DNA of 5,581 nt from CBDUXZ01 sp965371325 [NCBI: uncultured bacterium] (GTDB lineage: Bacteria > JAUYMQ01), in contig CBDUXZ010000155.1 in NCBI GenBank assembly GCA_965371325.1, forward strand, positions 1 to 5,581, in the 5' to 3' direction. Position numbers and translations under genes: made by a program. A model generated the notes under the pieces. That model was not told the DNA's origin. It ran no database searches and was given only the letters and a program-made list of their open reading frames with translations. The first letter of the stretch is position 1. Every line of letters starts with the position of its first letter. Of the stretch, positions 104 to 5,581 are shown piece by piece.

Positions 104-991
104 ATGAAGGCACATCGCGCCAGCCGCACCGCCGAGGGAATAGCAGCCGTTCGCGCCGTGGAATCGCTCCGCCCCGTGGGGGAGCGCCTCTTCGAAGACC
201 CCTTCGCACGGGGCTTTCTGGGCCGGCGCTACGGGGCCCTGGCCCTCCTCGCGCGGATCCCGTCCTTCCGGAACCTTCTGGTGAGGCTCTATGAGCAGCG
301 CCTGCCTGGCACCGTGGCCTACGCGGTCTGCCGCACGCGCTACATCGACGATGTGCTGACCGAGGCCGTCCGAGCGGGGGCGGAGCAGGTGGTGATCCTC
401 GGCGCGGGCTTCGACAGCCGCGCTTACCGAATGGCGGCGCTCGCGCGCACGCGGGTCTTCGAGGTGGATCACCCGGCCACCCAGGCCGCAAAAAGGGCGC
501 GGCTCGCGCGCATGCTTCCGGTCGTTCCTCCCCACGTCACGTTTGTGCCGATCGACTTCGAGAAGGAGAAGCTGGAGATCGCGCTGTTGCGGGCCGGCTA
601 TCGCGCCGGCGCACGAACATTTTTCATCTGGGAGGGCGTGGTCTCCTACCTGACGGCCGAGGCCGTCGCCGAGACACTCCGTTTCGTCGCCGACTCGTCG
701 GGGCCGGAGAGCCGCATCGTCTTTACCTACCTCCACCGGGGAATTCTCGACGGCACGGCGCGCTTCGAGGGTGCCGGCTCGCTCATCGCGTATGTGCGGC
801 GGCAGAAGGAGCCCTTCTCCTTCGGATTCTACCCGGATCGACTGGCGGCCGATCTTGCGGAGCGGGGTTTTGATCTCCTGGAAGATCTCGGCGCCGCCGA
901 GTGGCGCGCCCGCTACCCCGCAACCTTCGAGGCGCTGGATGTGAAGATCACGGGCTTCACACACGTGGCCCTCGCCCGCGTGCGCGCATGA
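104..991 (+). CDS. SAM-dependent methyltransferase, TIGR00027 / LCMT-like family
   Basis: A 295-residue cytosolic class I methyltransferase that would transfer a methyl group from S-adenosylmethionine; the acceptor is unknown. What is seen: the N-terminal SRTAEG segment (residues 7-12) and DPFA (32-35) typical of this family; motif I VVILGAGFDSRAYRM (96-110), the SAM-binding glycine-rich loop with its family-specific D-x-R-AYR extension; motif II FEVDHPATQAAKR (119-131), with an acidic residue expected to contact the ribose; and FIWEGVVSYLT (174-184), the conserved post-strand-4 motif. The length is usual for the family, which is related to leucine carboxyl methyltransferases and abundant in actinobacteria and proteobacteria. 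The start at 104 fits the ribosome binding site and the family N-terminus. Its stop overlaps the start of the next gene as ATGA, so the two are probably co-translated. Family assignment is strong; the methylated substrate cannot be predicted. Confidence 0.9.
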   Translation: MKAHRASRTAEGIAAVRAVESLRPVGERLFEDPFARGFLGRRYGALALLARIPSFRNLLVRLYEQRLPGTVAYAVCRTRYIDDVLTEAVRAGAEQVVILGAGFDSRAYRMAALARTRVFEVDHPATQAAKRARLARMLPVVPPHVTFVPIDFEKEKLEIALLRAGYRAGARTFFIWEGVVSYLTAEAVAETLRFVADSSGPESRIVFTYLHRGILDGTARFEGAGSLIAYVRRQKEPFSFGFYPDRLAADLAERGFDLLEDLGAAEWRARYPATFEALDVKITGFTHVALARVRA

Positions 992-2448
992 TCGGCACGC
1001 TCGGAGAGCTCTCGGCGCGGCTCGCGCATCGCTGGATGCCGGATCCGTTCGTCTTCGCAATTCTGCTCACCGCTCTCACGGCAACCCTCGCCGTGGCCTA
1101 CGGGCCCAACGTCGCGCCCGATGCGCTTCGCACCGGGGAGCAGGTGGCCCTCAACCAGGACGAGACCGGGCGGGACGCTGCGATCGCGCAGCAAACCGGG
1201 AGCGGCGAGGAGCCACGGGTGGGTGTGCTCCCGCGCGTCAGGCAGGTGGCCCGTTACTGGATCGATCCAGACAAGGGGTTCTGGTTCCTGCTGAAGTTCG
1301 GCATGCAGATGACGGTGATCCTCGTGACGGGCTTCGCCCTGGCGACAACGCCGATCGTCAGGCGCATGATCGACCGACTCGCGGACGTTCCCCGCGGACC
1401 GGGAAGCGCGGCGGCGCTCGTGGCCTTTGTCGCCATGGCGGCATCGTTCGTTCACTGGGGGCTGGGGCTGATGGGGGGCGCGCTTCTGGCGCGGGCCGTG
1501 GGGCTTCGGGCGCGTGCGCGGGGCGTTCCGATTCACTACCCGCTGCTGGGGGCGGCCGGTTACATGGGGCTCATGGTGTGGCACGGCGGGTGGTCGGGAT
1601 CGGCGCCGCTGATTTTTGCCAGCGATCAGCTCGGGATGCTGGGAGAGGGCGGCGCGCTGCCGTTCTCCATGACGATCCTGAGTCCGATGAACATCGCCGT
1701 CGCGCTGATCCTGCTGGCCGCGGTTCCCGCGCTCTTCTACTTCCTGGCGCCGCGGGAAGCGGCGCGGCTCGCGCCCTGTCCTCTCGCGGAGGAGGCGGCC
1801 GCCCGGGTGGAGTTGCCGACGGACGCGACGCCGGCGGCCAGGCTCAACCGCTCACGGCTTCTGGCCTGGGCCATCGGCCTGGCGGGCCTTTACGCGGTGA
1901 TCGGTTACGCGGTGGGAGCGCCCCGGGCGGATCAGATCGCCGTGATCAACGGGGTCTTCCTGTTCACCGGTCTGATCCTGCACGGCTCACCCGGCGCGTA
2001 CGTTCGCGCCATCACCGAGGGCGCGCGCGGCGCGGCGGGGATCATCCTGCAGTTCCCCTTTTACGCGGGCATCATGGGGATGATGAGCGCCTCGGGGCTG
2101 GCGGCGCTGGTTTCCGCCTGGTTCGCGCGCGTCTCAAGCCCTGAAATGTTTCCGGCTATGGCGTTTGTTTCGGCCGCGCTGGTGAATTTCTTCGTCCCCT
2201 CGGGCGGAGGGCAGGTGGCTGTGCAGGGGCAGGTTCTGATCGATTCCGCGAGCAGCCTGGGCGTGCCCGCGTGGAAGGCGGTGATGGCGCTCTCCTACGG
2301 GGATGAGATCGGGAACATGCTACAACCCTTCTGGGCCCTCCCTCTGCTGGCCATCACCGGCCTCGAGGCGCGCCAGATCATGGGCTACACCATCCTGGTG
2401 ATGCTCCTCTCCGCCCCGATCTTCATCGCCGCGCTCACCTTCTTCTGA
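988..2448 (+). CDS. atoE: Short-chain fatty acid permease, AtoE family
   Basis: A 486-residue polytopic inner-membrane transporter of the AtoE / SCFA_trans family (PF02667), expected to move short-chain fatty acids such as acetoacetate or butyrate. It follows the E. coli AtoE pattern from end to end: MIG start with RWMPDPFVFA (15-24), FWFLLKFGMQM (98-108), HWGLGLMGGALLAR (156-169), HYPLL (183-187), ILQFPFYAGI (353-362), NFFVPSGGGQ (400-409) and QPFWALPLLAITGL (446-459). I count about ten to twelve hydrophobic segments. ATG 988 is chosen over an in-frame ATG at 901 because homology starts at MIG and because 988 forms an ATGA overlap with the methyltransferase stop. There is no Shine-Dalgarno before it, which suggests translational coupling. 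Odd point: a hydrophilic insertion of roughly 45 residues (about 42-90) between the first two membrane segments, compared with the E. coli protein. Substrate is inferred from family only. Confidence 0.92.
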   Translation: MIGTLGELSARLAHRWMPDPFVFAILLTALTATLAVAYGPNVAPDALRTGEQVALNQDETGRDAAIAQQTGSGEEPRVGVLPRVRQVARYWIDPDKGFWFLLKFGMQMTVILVTGFALATTPIVRRMIDRLADVPRGPGSAAALVAFVAMAASFVHWGLGLMGGALLARAVGLRARARGVPIHYPLLGAAGYMGLMVWHGGWSGSAPLIFASDQLGMLGEGGALPFSMTILSPMNIAVALILLAAVPALFYFLAPREAARLAPCPLAEEAAARVELPTDATPAARLNRSRLLAWAIGLAGLYAVIGYAVGAPRADQIAVINGVFLFTGLILHGSPGAYVRAITEGARGAAGIILQFPFYAGIMGMMSASGLAALVSAWFARVSSPEMFPAMAFVSAALVNFFVPSGGGQVAVQGQVLIDSASSLGVPAWKAVMALSYGDEIGNMLQPFWALPLLAITGLEARQIMGYTILVMLLSAPIFIAALTFF

Positions 2449-2454
2449 TCAACG

Positions 2455-2547
2455 AATGGGGTCAGGTCTCTATATTGCGCCCACTTCGGTTGCCTGCAAG
2501 GTCGGTATCCCGGTGCGGGGGGCGCAATATAGAGACCTGACCCCATT
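2455..2547. repeat. 93-bp palindromic element (28-bp perfect inverted arms, REP/MITE-like)
   Basis: The left arm (2455-2482) begins AATGGGGTCAGGTCTCTATA and its exact reverse complement is the right arm (2520-2547), with a 37-base centre. All 28 pairs match. The GGGGTCAGGTCT core is, from memory, a motif dispersed in proteobacterial genomes and often found near REP-associated tyrosine transposases (Y1 type); no such transposase lies in this window. The element sits between the convergent permease and amidohydrolase genes, where its transcript would form a very stable stem and could act as a barrier or 3' end for both. It has no T-tract, so it is not a classical intrinsic terminator. Its outermost two bases on the right are part of the amidohydrolase stop codon. 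The perfect arms suggest recent arrival or strong selection for pairing. Confidence 0.85.
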
Positions 2548-3382
2548 AAAGTTTGAAGACGCGGCGGGCGTTTTCGTGGAAGAACTTCGCTTCGATCTCC
2601 TCGGGGAGGCCCAGCTTGCGCGCGTGCTCGACACACTTCTCGAAGGAGAGCTGCGGAAAGTTCGTTCCGAAAAGAACCTTCTCCTTTCCGTAGGTCTGCA
2701 TGAAGTGGATGAGCTGCATCGGGTAGTAGCGGGGAAGATAGGCCGAGGTGTCGATGTAGACGTTCTCGTGCTTCCAGGCCAGCGCGATCATCTCGTCGGT
2801 CCAGGGGTAGCCGATGTGCCCGCCCACGATGCGCAACTCGGGGAATGTCAGCGCGATCTCGTCGATGTGGGGAATGGGGCGCCCTGTTTCGGAGGGCTTC
2901 AGGGGCCCGGTGTGACCGACCTGCGTGCAGAAGGGGATGTCGAGCTCGATGCACTTGACGTAGAGCGGGTAGTAAAGGTTGTCGTTCGGCGGCCTGTTCC
3001 AGAGCCACGGAATCACACGAAGCGCCTTGAAGCCCAGCTCTCTCACCGCGCGATCCAGCTCGCGAACCGCCTCGACGGGATTCTCAAGGTTCACGGCGGC
3101 AACGCCTTCGAATCGTCCGGGGAACGCCCGCACGATCTCCGCCACGTCGTCGTTGCTGAAGACCCATCCGCCGGGGCGGTGCCAGGCCGACAGCATCACG
3201 GTTTGAATGCCCGCGCGGTCCATGGCCTCGACCATCTGCGCCGGCTCCATCCCCTTCTCGAGCAGATCGGCTCTGCCCGATTGCCGGAAGAGCCGCGCGA
3301 TCTCGGGGACGCCGTTCATCAACTCTTTGCTCGCGGGCTGCGCCCACGCATCGATCACCTGGAGTTTCCCGCCCGCTGACAT
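2546..3382 (-). CDS. Amidohydrolase-2 family protein with atypical metal site
   Basis: A 278-residue TIM-barrel protein of the amidohydrolase 2 family (PF04909), probably cytosolic since no signal peptide is seen. Visible landmarks: VIDAWAQPA (9-17) where most relatives have D-x-H-x-H; LSAWHRPGGWVFSND (64-78); FKALRVIPWLW (118-128); FCTQVGHTGP (151-160, H157); VGGHIGYPW (186-194, H189); NVYIDTSAY (207-215); FGTNFP (238-243), where N replaces the usual catalytic Asp of the G[ST]D[YF]P motif; and ENARRVF near the end. The strand-1 HxH pair and the strand-8 Asp are therefore absent, so metal binding is reduced or different. I recall a subgroup with the same IDAWAQ and GTN features, some annotated as 4-hydroxyphenyl-beta-ketoacyl-CoA hydrolase (CouO-like), so C-C bond hydrolysis of a beta-ketoacyl-CoA is one possibility. 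The start has a good AAAGGAG site 6 bases upstream. It converges on the permease gene, and its TAA stop overlaps the palindromic element. Confidence 0.85.
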   Translation of the reverse strand: MSAGGKLQVIDAWAQPASKELMNGVPEIARLFRQSGRADLLEKGMEPAQMVEAMDRAGIQTVMLSAWHRPGGWVFSNDDVAEIVRAFPGRFEGVAAVNLENPVEAVRELDRAVRELGFKALRVIPWLWNRPPNDNLYYPLYVKCIELDIPFCTQVGHTGPLKPSETGRPIPHIDEIALTFPELRIVGGHIGYPWTDEMIALAWKHENVYIDTSAYLPRYYPMQLIHFMQTYGKEKVLFGTNFPQLSFEKCVEHARKLGLPEEIEAKFFHENARRVFKL

Positions 3383-3858: not shown

Positions 3859-3908
3859 CGTCACGGTCCCGTCTTTAACCCGCCCAATGCCCGAGTACCG
3901 GGGCTGTG

Positions 3909-3938
3909 TTGACACCATGAGAATCAATGCACTAGCAT
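3909..3938 (+). promoter_or_regulatory. Weak sigma70-like promoter candidate
   Basis: A perfect TTGACA (3909-3914) is followed after 18 bases by TAGCAT (3933-3938, 4/6 to consensus). It points towards the sulfotransferase gene about 250 bases downstream and would read antisense through the transposase relic. It is the best-scoring hexamer pair I see upstream of that gene, but the long leader and poor -10 make it doubtful. Confidence 0.2.
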
Positions 3939-4142
3939 CCTCAACGAGGAAGAGGTGCGGTGTGAGATCATGGGCCGGAGATTGGGGCCGAGCCGGTACC
4001 CACTGGTCAGGCGCCAGCTCACCACCTTGCGGCTCTCCCGGTCCAGGACGACGTAGAGACAGAAGAAGCGCCACGGAATACGGCTCCCCAGATGCGTGAT
4101 GTCCCAGCGCCGCAGGTCATTTTGAACCCACCTGGTTTGTCG
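3924..4142 (-). pseudogene. Integrase-core (rve) transposase relic, IS3/IS481-like
   Basis: Read on the minus strand from about 4142, one frame gives TRWVQNDLRRWDITHLGSR, then RFFCLYVVLDRESRKVVSW, and stops at TGA 3926-3924. This is the first part of the DDE integrase core (PF00665): the W-D-I-T motif carries the first catalytic Asp (codon 4103-4101), and LYVVLD.xSRKVVxW is the conserved second strand pair. There is no start codon. The N-terminal half with its helix-turn-helix is missing, and after VVSWRL the family resemblance is lost, so the second Asp and the Glu are absent. It cannot be functional. The exact IS family is uncertain: the W-DIT-L and LYVVLD wording resembles IS3-group and IS481-group enzymes. 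Its upstream edge lies about 45 bases from the sulfotransferase start, marking an old rearrangement point. Confidence 0.65.
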
Positions 4143-4186
4143 AGATGTTCCTTGTAGTCCTCCATATGTGAAGGATACGTAATTCG

Positions 4187-5020
4187 ATGCCCGCTAGGAA
4201 TCTTGTAGATAGAGTTCTAAGGAACGTACATCGGATTAGAAAGAACCTCTGGCAACGAGCCCATCCCGTGAGAGGTCAGCGTAAGCCGGTATTTATTGTC
4301 GGATGCCACCGATCCGGGACCACCATGTTGACGCATATCTTTCGAAAGAGCTACCACACCAGCGTCTACAACGAACGCGATCCAGCGGCTTTTATCGGGG
4401 CCCGTCTTCGTCCTGTTGATCAAATTGATGACCTGATCGAAAGAAGTCCTGGCCGTTTCATTGTGTTCAAGCCGATTTGTGATTCTCAGTGGATAGACCG
4501 CATCTTGCGCGTTCGACCCAATGCAACTGCAATCTGGATCTACCGGAATTATCGTGACGCGGCCGCCTCCATGGTGAAGAAGTGGGGCGGGCATCAAAAG
4601 AGGGCGATGACATCGCTCGTAAATGGTGAATTAAAGCCTCCCCACTGGCGGGCTGAAAGGATTGACAGTAAGACCCTGGAACTAACAAAGGCTTTATATT
4701 CTCCTGATATGTCCTACCACTCTGCAGCGCTCCTCGCATGGTACCTGAGGAACCAAATATTTTTCGACTTGAAATTGGAAGAACGCGAAGACGTCATCGT
4801 GGTTAAATATGAAGACTTGGTAAAGGATCCATCGAGACTATTTAATCAAGTCTTCGACTACATAGGATGTGAGTTTAATGAGAATTTGATCACGGATGTG
4901 CATGAGCTCTCGATCGAAAAAGGAAAGGACATATCTTATCCGGACGAATTGATCGATGCTTGCGAGTCTATGCAGCGGGACTTGGATCGCGTGCTGGAGC
5001 ATGGCCGAAATGGGAAGTGA
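4187..5020 (+). CDS. Sulfotransferase family protein
   Basis: A 277-residue PAPS-dependent sulfotransferase (PF00685/PF13469 type) that would move a sulfuryl group to an unknown acceptor, such as a sugar, lipid or peptide. Visible motifs: the 5'-phosphosulfate loop VFIVGCHRSGTTML (35-48); FKPICDS (94-100) on the next core strand; the 3'-phosphate-binding segment IWIYRNYRDAAASM (116-129) with R120 and S128; and VVKYEDLVKDP (205-215), a common conserved strand-loop of the family. HSAALLAWYLRNQIFFDL (178-195) matches the usual helix before it. No signal peptide or membrane anchor is seen, and the length is normal for the family. The start at 4187 has only a modest AAGGA site 11 bases upstream. 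Codon use is visibly richer in A/T-ending codons (AGA, ATA, TTA, AAA) than in the genes at 104-3382, and a transposase relic adjoins it, suggesting horizontal transfer. It appears to stand alone. Confidence 0.85.
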   Translation: MPARNLVDRVLRNVHRIRKNLWQRAHPVRGQRKPVFIVGCHRSGTTMLTHIFRKSYHTSVYNERDPAAFIGARLRPVDQIDDLIERSPGRFIVFKPICDSQWIDRILRVRPNATAIWIYRNYRDAAASMVKKWGGHQKRAMTSLVNGELKPPHWRAERIDSKTLELTKALYSPDMSYHSAALLAWYLRNQIFFDLKLEEREDVIVVKYEDLVKDPSRLFNQVFDYIGCEFNENLITDVHELSIEKGKDISYPDELIDACESMQRDLDRVLEHGRNGK

Positions 5021-5186: not shown

Positions 5187-5220
5187 GGCTCGGGAGCGAG
5201 CCTCCTCAAGCGCTTGTTTT
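5187..5220 (+). terminator. Possible weak terminator downstream of the sulfotransferase
   Basis: GGCTCG-GGAG-CGAGCC (5187-5202) is a perfect 6-bp hairpin. It is followed shortly by the palindrome CAAGCGCTTG (5207-5216) and then TTTT. Either could end transcripts from the sulfotransferase gene, whose stop lies about 165 bases upstream. The gap between stem and T-run is irregular, so confidence is low. Confidence 0.25.
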
Positions 5221-5237
5221 CAGGAGAGAAATAGTAA

Positions 5238-5450
5238 TTTGCCACCCACAGGTCTGGCAGCTTTACCTGCAGCGATGTCAGCACCGATGCGAATGTCAGC
5301 AGTGGCGTGGCCCTCGGGGATCTGGATGGCCCGGAGCCCATTCCGGCACTTTCGCTCCGCGGCAGCTTGATTGCCCTCCTGCTCTTGTTCGTGGGCGCTG
5401 CCGTCGCCGGGCTGTCACGCAGGCGCTCGCGGAGCGTGGCAAGCGCATAG
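5238..5450 (+). pseudogene. Remnant of an exported protein: C-terminal PEP/IPTL-CTERM-like sorting tail
   Basis: One frame from 5238 to the TAG at 5448-5450 gives 70 residues with no usable start codon: in-frame stops lie directly before it (TAG 5232, TAA 5235) and further up (TGA 5181). The tail has the tripartite form of exosortase or rhombosortase-type sorting signals: a short motif PEPIPALS (32-39), a hydrophobic helix SLIALLLLFVGAAVAG (43-58), and a basic end SRRRSR (60-65). Ahead of it is a Ser/Asp/Gly-rich stretch (DVSTDANVSSGVALGDLDG, 13-31) typical of surface proteins. In the family this tail anchors proteins in the membrane until they are sorted to the surface. A good AAAGGAG (5090-5096) with ATG 5106 in the same frame may be the original start, but the codons between are interrupted and show no signal peptide. 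I read it as a truncated, decayed gene; the body of the protein is missing. Confidence 0.55.
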
Positions 5451-5459
5451 GCACAGCCA

Positions 5460-5512
5460 CTTTTTCATCCCTGAAAAAGAACGCCCCACCCTTTCGCAGG
5501 GTGGGGCTCTTT
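5460..5512. terminator. Strong, probably bidirectional intrinsic terminator
   Basis: GCCCCACCCT (5483-5492) pairs perfectly with AGGGTGGGGC (5498-5507) over a TTCGC loop. On the plus strand it is followed by TCTTT. On the minus strand it is followed by GTTCTTTTT, a better T-tract. Immediately upstream is a second small hairpin, CTTTTTCA-TCCC-TGAAAAAG (5460-5479). It sits just past the stop of the decayed surface-protein gene, which it probably once served, and may also end a minus-strand gene lying beyond the right edge. Nothing identifiable follows up to 5581. Confidence 0.75.
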
Positions 5513-5581
5513 ACACGGGCGCACAGAGCGGGCGAGGTTTCTTGATGGGGAGTGATGGGGCCGGAAGAACGCGCTTGAGAG

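What the first reader, a model, noticed from the sequence alone, without database searches (positions are those of the whole stretch)
2455..2547. Perfect 28-bp palindromic element that supplies part of a stop codon
The right edge of the element (AATGGGGTCAGG read on the minus strand) provides the last two bases of the amidohydrolase TAA. The left edge begins 7 bases after the permease stop. The element therefore fills almost the whole convergent gap without damaging either gene. Perfect pairing over 28 bases suggests recent mobility or selection for a stem. It may be a non-autonomous relative of elements moved by a REP-associated Y1 transposase, here also acting as a shared 3' end for two mRNAs.
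Basis: partly seen in the sequence, partly recalled or inferred. Interest (0 to 1): 0.6.

Follow-up and report, generated by a model that had tools for sequence, protein, structure and literature searches.

The report
Small palindromic mobile element between genes
A 93-base perfect palindrome sits between two genes; its end sequence is shared with a widespread family of tiny mobile DNA elements that appear to be spread by a known single-strand-DNA transposase family, so it is a new copy of a known kind of thing rather than a new system.

Summary
In detail: window 2455-2547 is a 28-bp perfect inverted repeat around a 37-nt loop, filling the gap between a convergent permease and amidohydrolase. 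Each arm carries GGGGTCAGGTCT. Of 28 of those genomes, 26 have a Y1 transposase gene; of 55 Y1 ORFs read, 25 have inverted GGGGWSAS arms on both sides. Inner arms of transposase flanks and dispersed elements match better within a genome (11.6 of 14) than between genomes (6.9). This is the TIR/TIRYT kind of Di Nocera 2013, not a REP. Best reading: a non-autonomous TIR element mobilised in trans by a TIRYT. The stop-codon idea is weak: the family's common edge is GGGG, leaving the TAA one base outside. No intrinsic terminator was found. The host genome is not held, so its copy number and transposase could not be tested.

The parts
2455..2482 (+). left arm of the palindrome (28 nt)
   Evidence: the repeat finder
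2458..2469 (+). family tag GGGGTCAGGTCT, left
   Evidence: shared with the 118 loci; fits GGGGWSAS
2470..2482 (+). lineage-specific inner arm CTATATTGCGCCC
   Evidence: inner arm varies between genomes; best match 7 of 13 among fully tagged sites read
2483..2519 (+). 37-nt loop; its own fold is little better than shuffles (z -0.97)
2520..2547 (-). right arm of the palindrome (28 nt)
2533..2544 (-). family tag GGGGTCAGGTCT, right
991..2448 (+). flanking short-chain fatty acid transporter (SCFA_trans); host gene, not part of the element
   Evidence: Pfam PF02667, profile 5-453 of 453
2546..3382 (-). flanking amidohydrolase (Amidohydro_2), matched to the end of the profile; host gene
   Evidence: Pfam PF04909, profile 61-289 of 289

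Best explanation
The element is a non-autonomous miniature element of the TIR type associated with TIRYT (RAYT-like Y1/HUH) transposases. Two inverted arms, each a 12-nt tag plus a lineage-specific inner half, surround a short filler. Shown here, in other genomes: the shared tag, multiple copies, tag-flanked transposase genes, and the match of inner arms within a genome. Inferred: in single-stranded DNA (for example the lagging-strand template) the arms fold into one hairpin, a TIRYT encoded elsewhere in the genome recognises tag and inner arm, cuts next to GGGG and pastes the element elsewhere without a target duplication. It was tolerated here because it lies in a 97-nt convergent gap (2449-2545) and truncates neither gene. 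Any effect on mRNA 3' ends would be a by-product.
For: 23 of 28 genomes carry copies at 20-50 nt spacing, up to 41; the same pattern read backwards gives 0 in all 28. Y1_Tnp in 26 of 28 genomes. 25 of 55 Y1 ORFs have GGGGWSAS arms, inverted, on both sides. Inner-arm match within genome 11.6 of 14 against 6.9 between, 0 of 10,000 permutations, 18 genomes. Both of two tag-flanked transposases scanned pass NCBIfam NF047646, REP-associated tyrosine transposase. 9 of 126 elements inside a called gene, against 77% of random positions, by a rough caller. No excess of direct repeats of 3-10 nt at the edges. In G028, 16 flanks of 8 copies show no similar pair.
Against: The host genome is not held, so neither dispersed copies nor a cognate transposase were seen in the window's own organism. 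The arm was not found in the collections scanned (21-mers), and the inner arm matches nothing better than 7 of 13 among fully tagged sites read. 30 of 55 Y1 ORFs lack such arms on at least one side. Between-genome inner-arm matches reach 14 of 14 in places, and three genomes match poorly within themselves (G011 4, G003 7, G019 9). Flanks of copies in G008 and G023 are not independent: 139 and 25 similar pairs. No transposition was observed.
Confidence: 0.82

Rival explanations
1. A bidirectional transcription terminator or 3'-end stabiliser kept by selection at a convergent gene pair, not mobile.
For: Convergent position filling the gap; very stable RNA stem. Related elements favour gene 3' ends somewhat: 31 of the 94 placed between two called genes are convergent, 33%, against about 23% of random intergenic positions.
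Against: No terminator-like site in 2300-2700. Tag shared across many phylum-level groups and with transposase flanks. 50 of 126 elements lie between tandem and 13 between divergent calls.
Confidence: 0.1
2. A true REP or REPIN of the GTAG class moved by TnpA_REP.
For: Palindromic, extragenic, same transposase superfamily.
Against: No GTAG-type head at the arm; a single arm does not fold as DNA (-0.6 kcal/mol, 154 of 200 shuffles as good); termini fit GGGGWSAS instead.
Confidence: 0.04
3. A MITE of a DDE transposon whose ends also begin GGGGTC (Tn3-type ends, recalled, not from a call).
For: The first letters resemble Tn3-family ends (recalled).
Against: Arms are shorter than Tn3 ends (recalled 38 bp). 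No 5-bp direct repeat in the window, and 0 of 120 related elements have one. The tags flank Y1 genes.
Confidence: 0.02
4. The element was kept because it supplies stop codons to flanking genes.
For: Two letters of the amidohydrolase TAA lie in the arm. 29 flanking ORFs end inside one of 123 unique related elements, by a rough caller. 11 of 55 Y1 ORFs use the TGA in their right tag. Counted over all 246 element sides without merging relatives, one frame meets a stop within 24 nt in 91 (37%) against 14.5% in shuffles.
Against: After merging related arms, stops at positions 20-22 are 9 of 65, just what position-wise base composition predicts (0.14), and the other two frames have fewer early stops than shuffles (36 and 53 of 246, against 20% and 32%). 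The window's own arm has no stop in the inner codons, and its TAA lies outside the common core.
Confidence: 0.02

Closest known systems
TIR repeats / TIRtrons with TIRYT transposases (Di Nocera et al. 2013, PMC3733652; section 16 and passages read)
   Same: Termini fit GGGGWSAS; inverted arms; the same motif flanks Y1 transposase genes; dimers or clusters of repeats are described there.
   Different: This copy carries no transposase, and its inner arm CTATATTGCGCCC was not matched in the loci read here.
TnpA_REP subclass 2.1 (Quentin et al. 2018, PMC6006769; section 20 and passages read)
   Same: The 25 transposases with arms on both sides are 227-350 aa, 23 of them 267 aa or longer. All four scanned have the Y1 domain; one has HTH_23 over its cut-off.
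   Different: That paper found no REP-like sequences near subclass 2.1 genes and left the TIRYT link to be confirmed; here such arms are shared with dispersed palindromes. Membership of these proteins in subclass 2.1 itself was not tested.
REP / REPIN with RAYT (Nunvar 2010, PMC2817692, passages; TnpAREP 2021, PMC8266576, passages)
   Same: Short extragenic palindromes linked to a Y1 transposase, inverted around its gene.
   Different: REPs have a GTAG-type head and fold by themselves; here the head is GGGG and only the two arms together fold.

Membership tests
TIR element of a TIRtron (Di Nocera 2013) | Termini fit GGGGWSAS | tested here: met
   GGGGTCAG at 2458 and, on the minus strand, from 2544; the only two such motifs in the window
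TIR element of a TIRtron (Di Nocera 2013) | Inverted arrangement of the two termini | tested here: met
   28-bp inverted repeat
TIR element of a TIRtron (Di Nocera 2013) | Same family of termini flanks Y1 transposase genes | tested here: met
   Met in other genomes only: 25 of 55 Y1 ORFs, both sides
TIR element of a TIRtron (Di Nocera 2013) | Cognate TIRYT in the host genome with the same arms | not testable with these tools
   No genome held for the window
TIR element of a TIRtron (Di Nocera 2013) | Dispersed copies in the host genome | not testable with these tools
   No genome held; 23 of 28 other genomes carry copies at 20-50 nt spacing, 21 of them two or more
REP / REPIN | GTAG or GT[AG]G head | tested here: not met
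   Head is GGGG
REP / REPIN | Each unit folds into its own hairpin | tested here: not met
   Single arm -0.6 kcal/mol, z 0.81, DNA parameters
Intrinsic terminator | GC-rich hairpin followed by a T-run | tested here: not met
   0 sites found in 2300-2700; that scan allows loops of 3-8 only, but no T-run follows either arm
Tn3-type MITE | 5-bp target duplication | tested here: not met
   CGAAT versus ATTAA in the window; 0 of 120 related elements

The most novel reading that the evidence does not exclude
One 12-nt tag, GGGGTCAGGTCT, recurs in elements and transposase flanks across some 19 phylum-level names, while the inner 13-14 nt changes from genome to genome together with the resident transposase. 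This would be a split-address system: the common tag marks where a TIRYT cuts, the inner arm is read by the lineage-specific part of the enzyme (perhaps its C-terminal helix-turn-helix), and the window element is a member with an address not seen before in the loci read.
Probability: 0.3. Interest if true: 0.5.

Novelty: new member of a known kind. Interest (0 to 1): 0.3.

Why it matters
The single copy is ordinary. The family around it is less so: its tag recurs under many phylum-level names, and the arm-to-transposase match within genomes is evidence that dispersed palindromes and TIRYT-like genes belong together, a link that Quentin et al. 2018 left to be confirmed. It gives ready substrate and enzyme pairs for a bench test.

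Tried and rejected
Viral contigs with a 14-mer of one arm gave 80 loci, the tool's maximum; none had the inverse 11-mer within 3 kb, so I take them as chance or unrelated. Two-arm searches there gave 0 loci with a 13-nt arm, then 1 and 3 with an 11-nt arm, three distinct loci in all, including L081 with five palindromes. BLAST of the element against plasmids found nothing; a 401-base query against phages found 5 records with short weak matches. Rfam at gathering thresholds found nothing. Designed stop codons were tested and not supported after merging relatives, although the unmerged count of one frame is above shuffles (figures under the rival). Direct repeats at the edges: 0 of 121 at 3 nt, 1 of 120 at 4, 0 at 5-10; at 2 nt 21 of 122 against a shuffle mean of 10.7 and maximum of 20, but 13 of the 21 are AT, which is its own complement and so cannot tell duplication from pairing. 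A host was sought through the permease: 6 of 95, 22 of 148, 22 of 148, 2 of 30, 2 of 297 and 2 of 398 genomes matched at the differing E limits used; best identity 51%. Searches sampled the same phylum and gave the same matches, so they are not independent. The host was not placed. The within-genome pair test was mixed: cells with both arms changed alike versus one arm changed were 12 vs 2 in G022 (and 2 changed differently), 10 vs 1 in G028 (9 of the 10 from one divergent copy, L163), 33 vs 29 in G008 (and 2 changed differently) and 1 vs 7 in G023. The G008 and G023 counts include nested matches, and one G008 place is counted twice (L098 and L300). Similar flank pairs were 0 in G028, 1 in G022, 25 in G023 and 139 in G008; the printed ones are short, and extra arm copies nearby probably cause many of them, which I did not test.

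Full report
What is there. The window holds four genes with family matches: a SAM-dependent methyltransferase (104-991), a short-chain fatty acid transporter (991-2448), a convergent amidohydrolase (3382-2546) and a sulfotransferase (4187-5020). Between the second and third lies a perfect 28-bp inverted repeat, 2455-2482 and 2520-2547, around 37 nt. Chance is excluded: about 2e-10 such repeats would be expected from base composition, and 0 of 200 shuffles folds as well. By Pfam the transporter covers 5-453 of 453 profile positions and the amidohydrolase reaches the end of its profile, so the element truncates neither.

Is it a family? A 21-base arm pattern is absent from genome contigs and a second one from viral contigs. 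From the record titles I count 19 phylum-level names, among them Pseudomonadota isolates such as Massilia, Duganella and Kineobactrum and many metagenome-assembled genomes; binning errors and overlapping names (Aminicenantes and Acidobacteria, for example) could inflate this. Several loci come from the same genome. The 126 elements in these loci share the tag by construction and vary inside. In 28 of these genomes, chosen by me, the pattern at 20-50 nt spacing occurs in 23, up to 41 copies, while the same pattern read backwards occurs in none. One viral contig, L081, carries five such palindromes.

What moves it? 26 of 28 genomes have a Y1_Tnp gene. I gave 72 loci to a motif search, which found 55 distinct Y1 ORFs; the rest were duplicates or not recognised and were not scored. 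Of the 55, 25 have GGGGWSAS arms, inverted, on both sides. In the 30 loci with at least one such arm I collected 55 distinct arms; 26 begin GGGGTCAGGTCT, the others are variants such as GGGGTCAGATCT and GGGGTCACATCT. In 18 genomes with both a transposase with arms and a sampled element, the best inner-arm match averages 11.6 of 14 within a genome and 6.9 between genomes, and 0 of 10,000 permutations reach this. Some between-genome pairs reach 14, and G011 (4), G003 (7) and G019 (9) match poorly within themselves. Both transposases scanned pass the NCBIfam model for REP-associated tyrosine transposase. All four scanned by Pfam pass the Y1_Tnp cut-off; one passes HTH_23, and three in all have a helix-turn-helix match at E below 0.002.

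Where do they sit? By a rough ORF caller, 9 of 126 elements lie inside a gene against 77% of random positions; 50 are between tandem, 31 convergent, 13 divergent genes and 23 at locus edges. That caller picks a shadow ORF in the window itself, so the figures are approximate. 29 flanking ORFs end inside one of 123 unique elements. 11 of 55 transposase ORFs take their TGA stop from their own right tag. After merging related arms, stops at positions 20-22 are 9 of 65, as composition predicts; unmerged, one frame has early stops on 91 of 246 sides against 14.5% in shuffles, and the other two frames fewer than shuffles. I read this as a by-product of a few large subfamilies and of landing at gene ends.

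The stop codon in the window. Pairing across 123 elements is complete at the tag by construction, 0.97 at position 13, 0.63 at -1, 0.44 at -2, 0.39 at -3 and 0.31-0.32 from -4 to -8; composition predicts 0.30, 0.30 and 0.27 at -1 to -3. Some subfamilies therefore extend outward by a few pairs, but the common edge is GGGG. The TAA at 2546-2548 then lies one base outside the core, and its two letters in the arm are more likely flank. An empty site would settle this; none was found.

Literature. Di Nocera et al. 2013 (passages and section 16 read) describe TIRs around TIRYT genes, some sharing the motif GGGGWSAS, many in dimers or clusters. Quentin et al. 2018 (passages and section 20 read) place 20 of 26 of these in TnpA_REP subclass 2.1, saw no REP-like sequence near that subclass, and call for further analysis. 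A search for TIRYT finds these two papers alone in the held library. Searches for the strings ACCTGACCCC and GGGGTCAGG showed 20 of 37 and 40 of 183 papers; by title none is about REP- or TIR-type repeats, and I opened none of them. The exact 12-mer may be in print elsewhere.

Mechanism. Shown, in other genomes: the tag, the arm pairing, multiple copies and the coupling to transposase flanks. Inferred: that a TIRYT acts on the folded single strand, as TnpA_REP does on REPs (passages of PMC8266576), and that the window's host has one. A lone arm does not fold, so if folding matters it is the whole element that folds. Regulation of the two mRNAs is open; no intrinsic terminator is found.

Limits. 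No host genome is held, the permease searches did not place the host (best 51%), and the inner arm of the window matched nothing better than 7 of 13 among fully tagged sites.

Noticed in passing
window 3880-4200, minus strand: A decayed fragment that resembles the integrase core (rve) of a transposase, below the Pfam cut-off (23.9 of 32.6 bits).
   Followed up: partly
window 5220-5460, plus strand: A short frame ending in a hydrophobic stretch and SRRRSR, like a sorting-signal tail (label recalled); upstream the frame has stops.
   Followed up: no
window 5471-5520: A GC-rich stem (CCCACCCTTTCGCAGGGTGGG) that looks like a terminator hairpin; seen by eye, not scored.
   Followed up: no
L081 1871-7279: Viral contig with five tagged palindromes; its ORFs look phage-like by eye only.
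   Followed up: partly
L216, L219, L273: The last residues of these transposases (ending ET or QT) and their TGA stop are read from their own right terminal repeat.
   Followed up: partly
L112, L151, L177, L181, L190: Right arms followed by a second copy of arm plus a few flanking bases, like small tandem duplications (seen by eye).
   Followed up: no
L303-L305, L128 (genome G022): The palindrome runs two to six bases beyond GGGG (flanks such as AAACAG / CTGTTT), more than is usual in the family.
   Followed up: no
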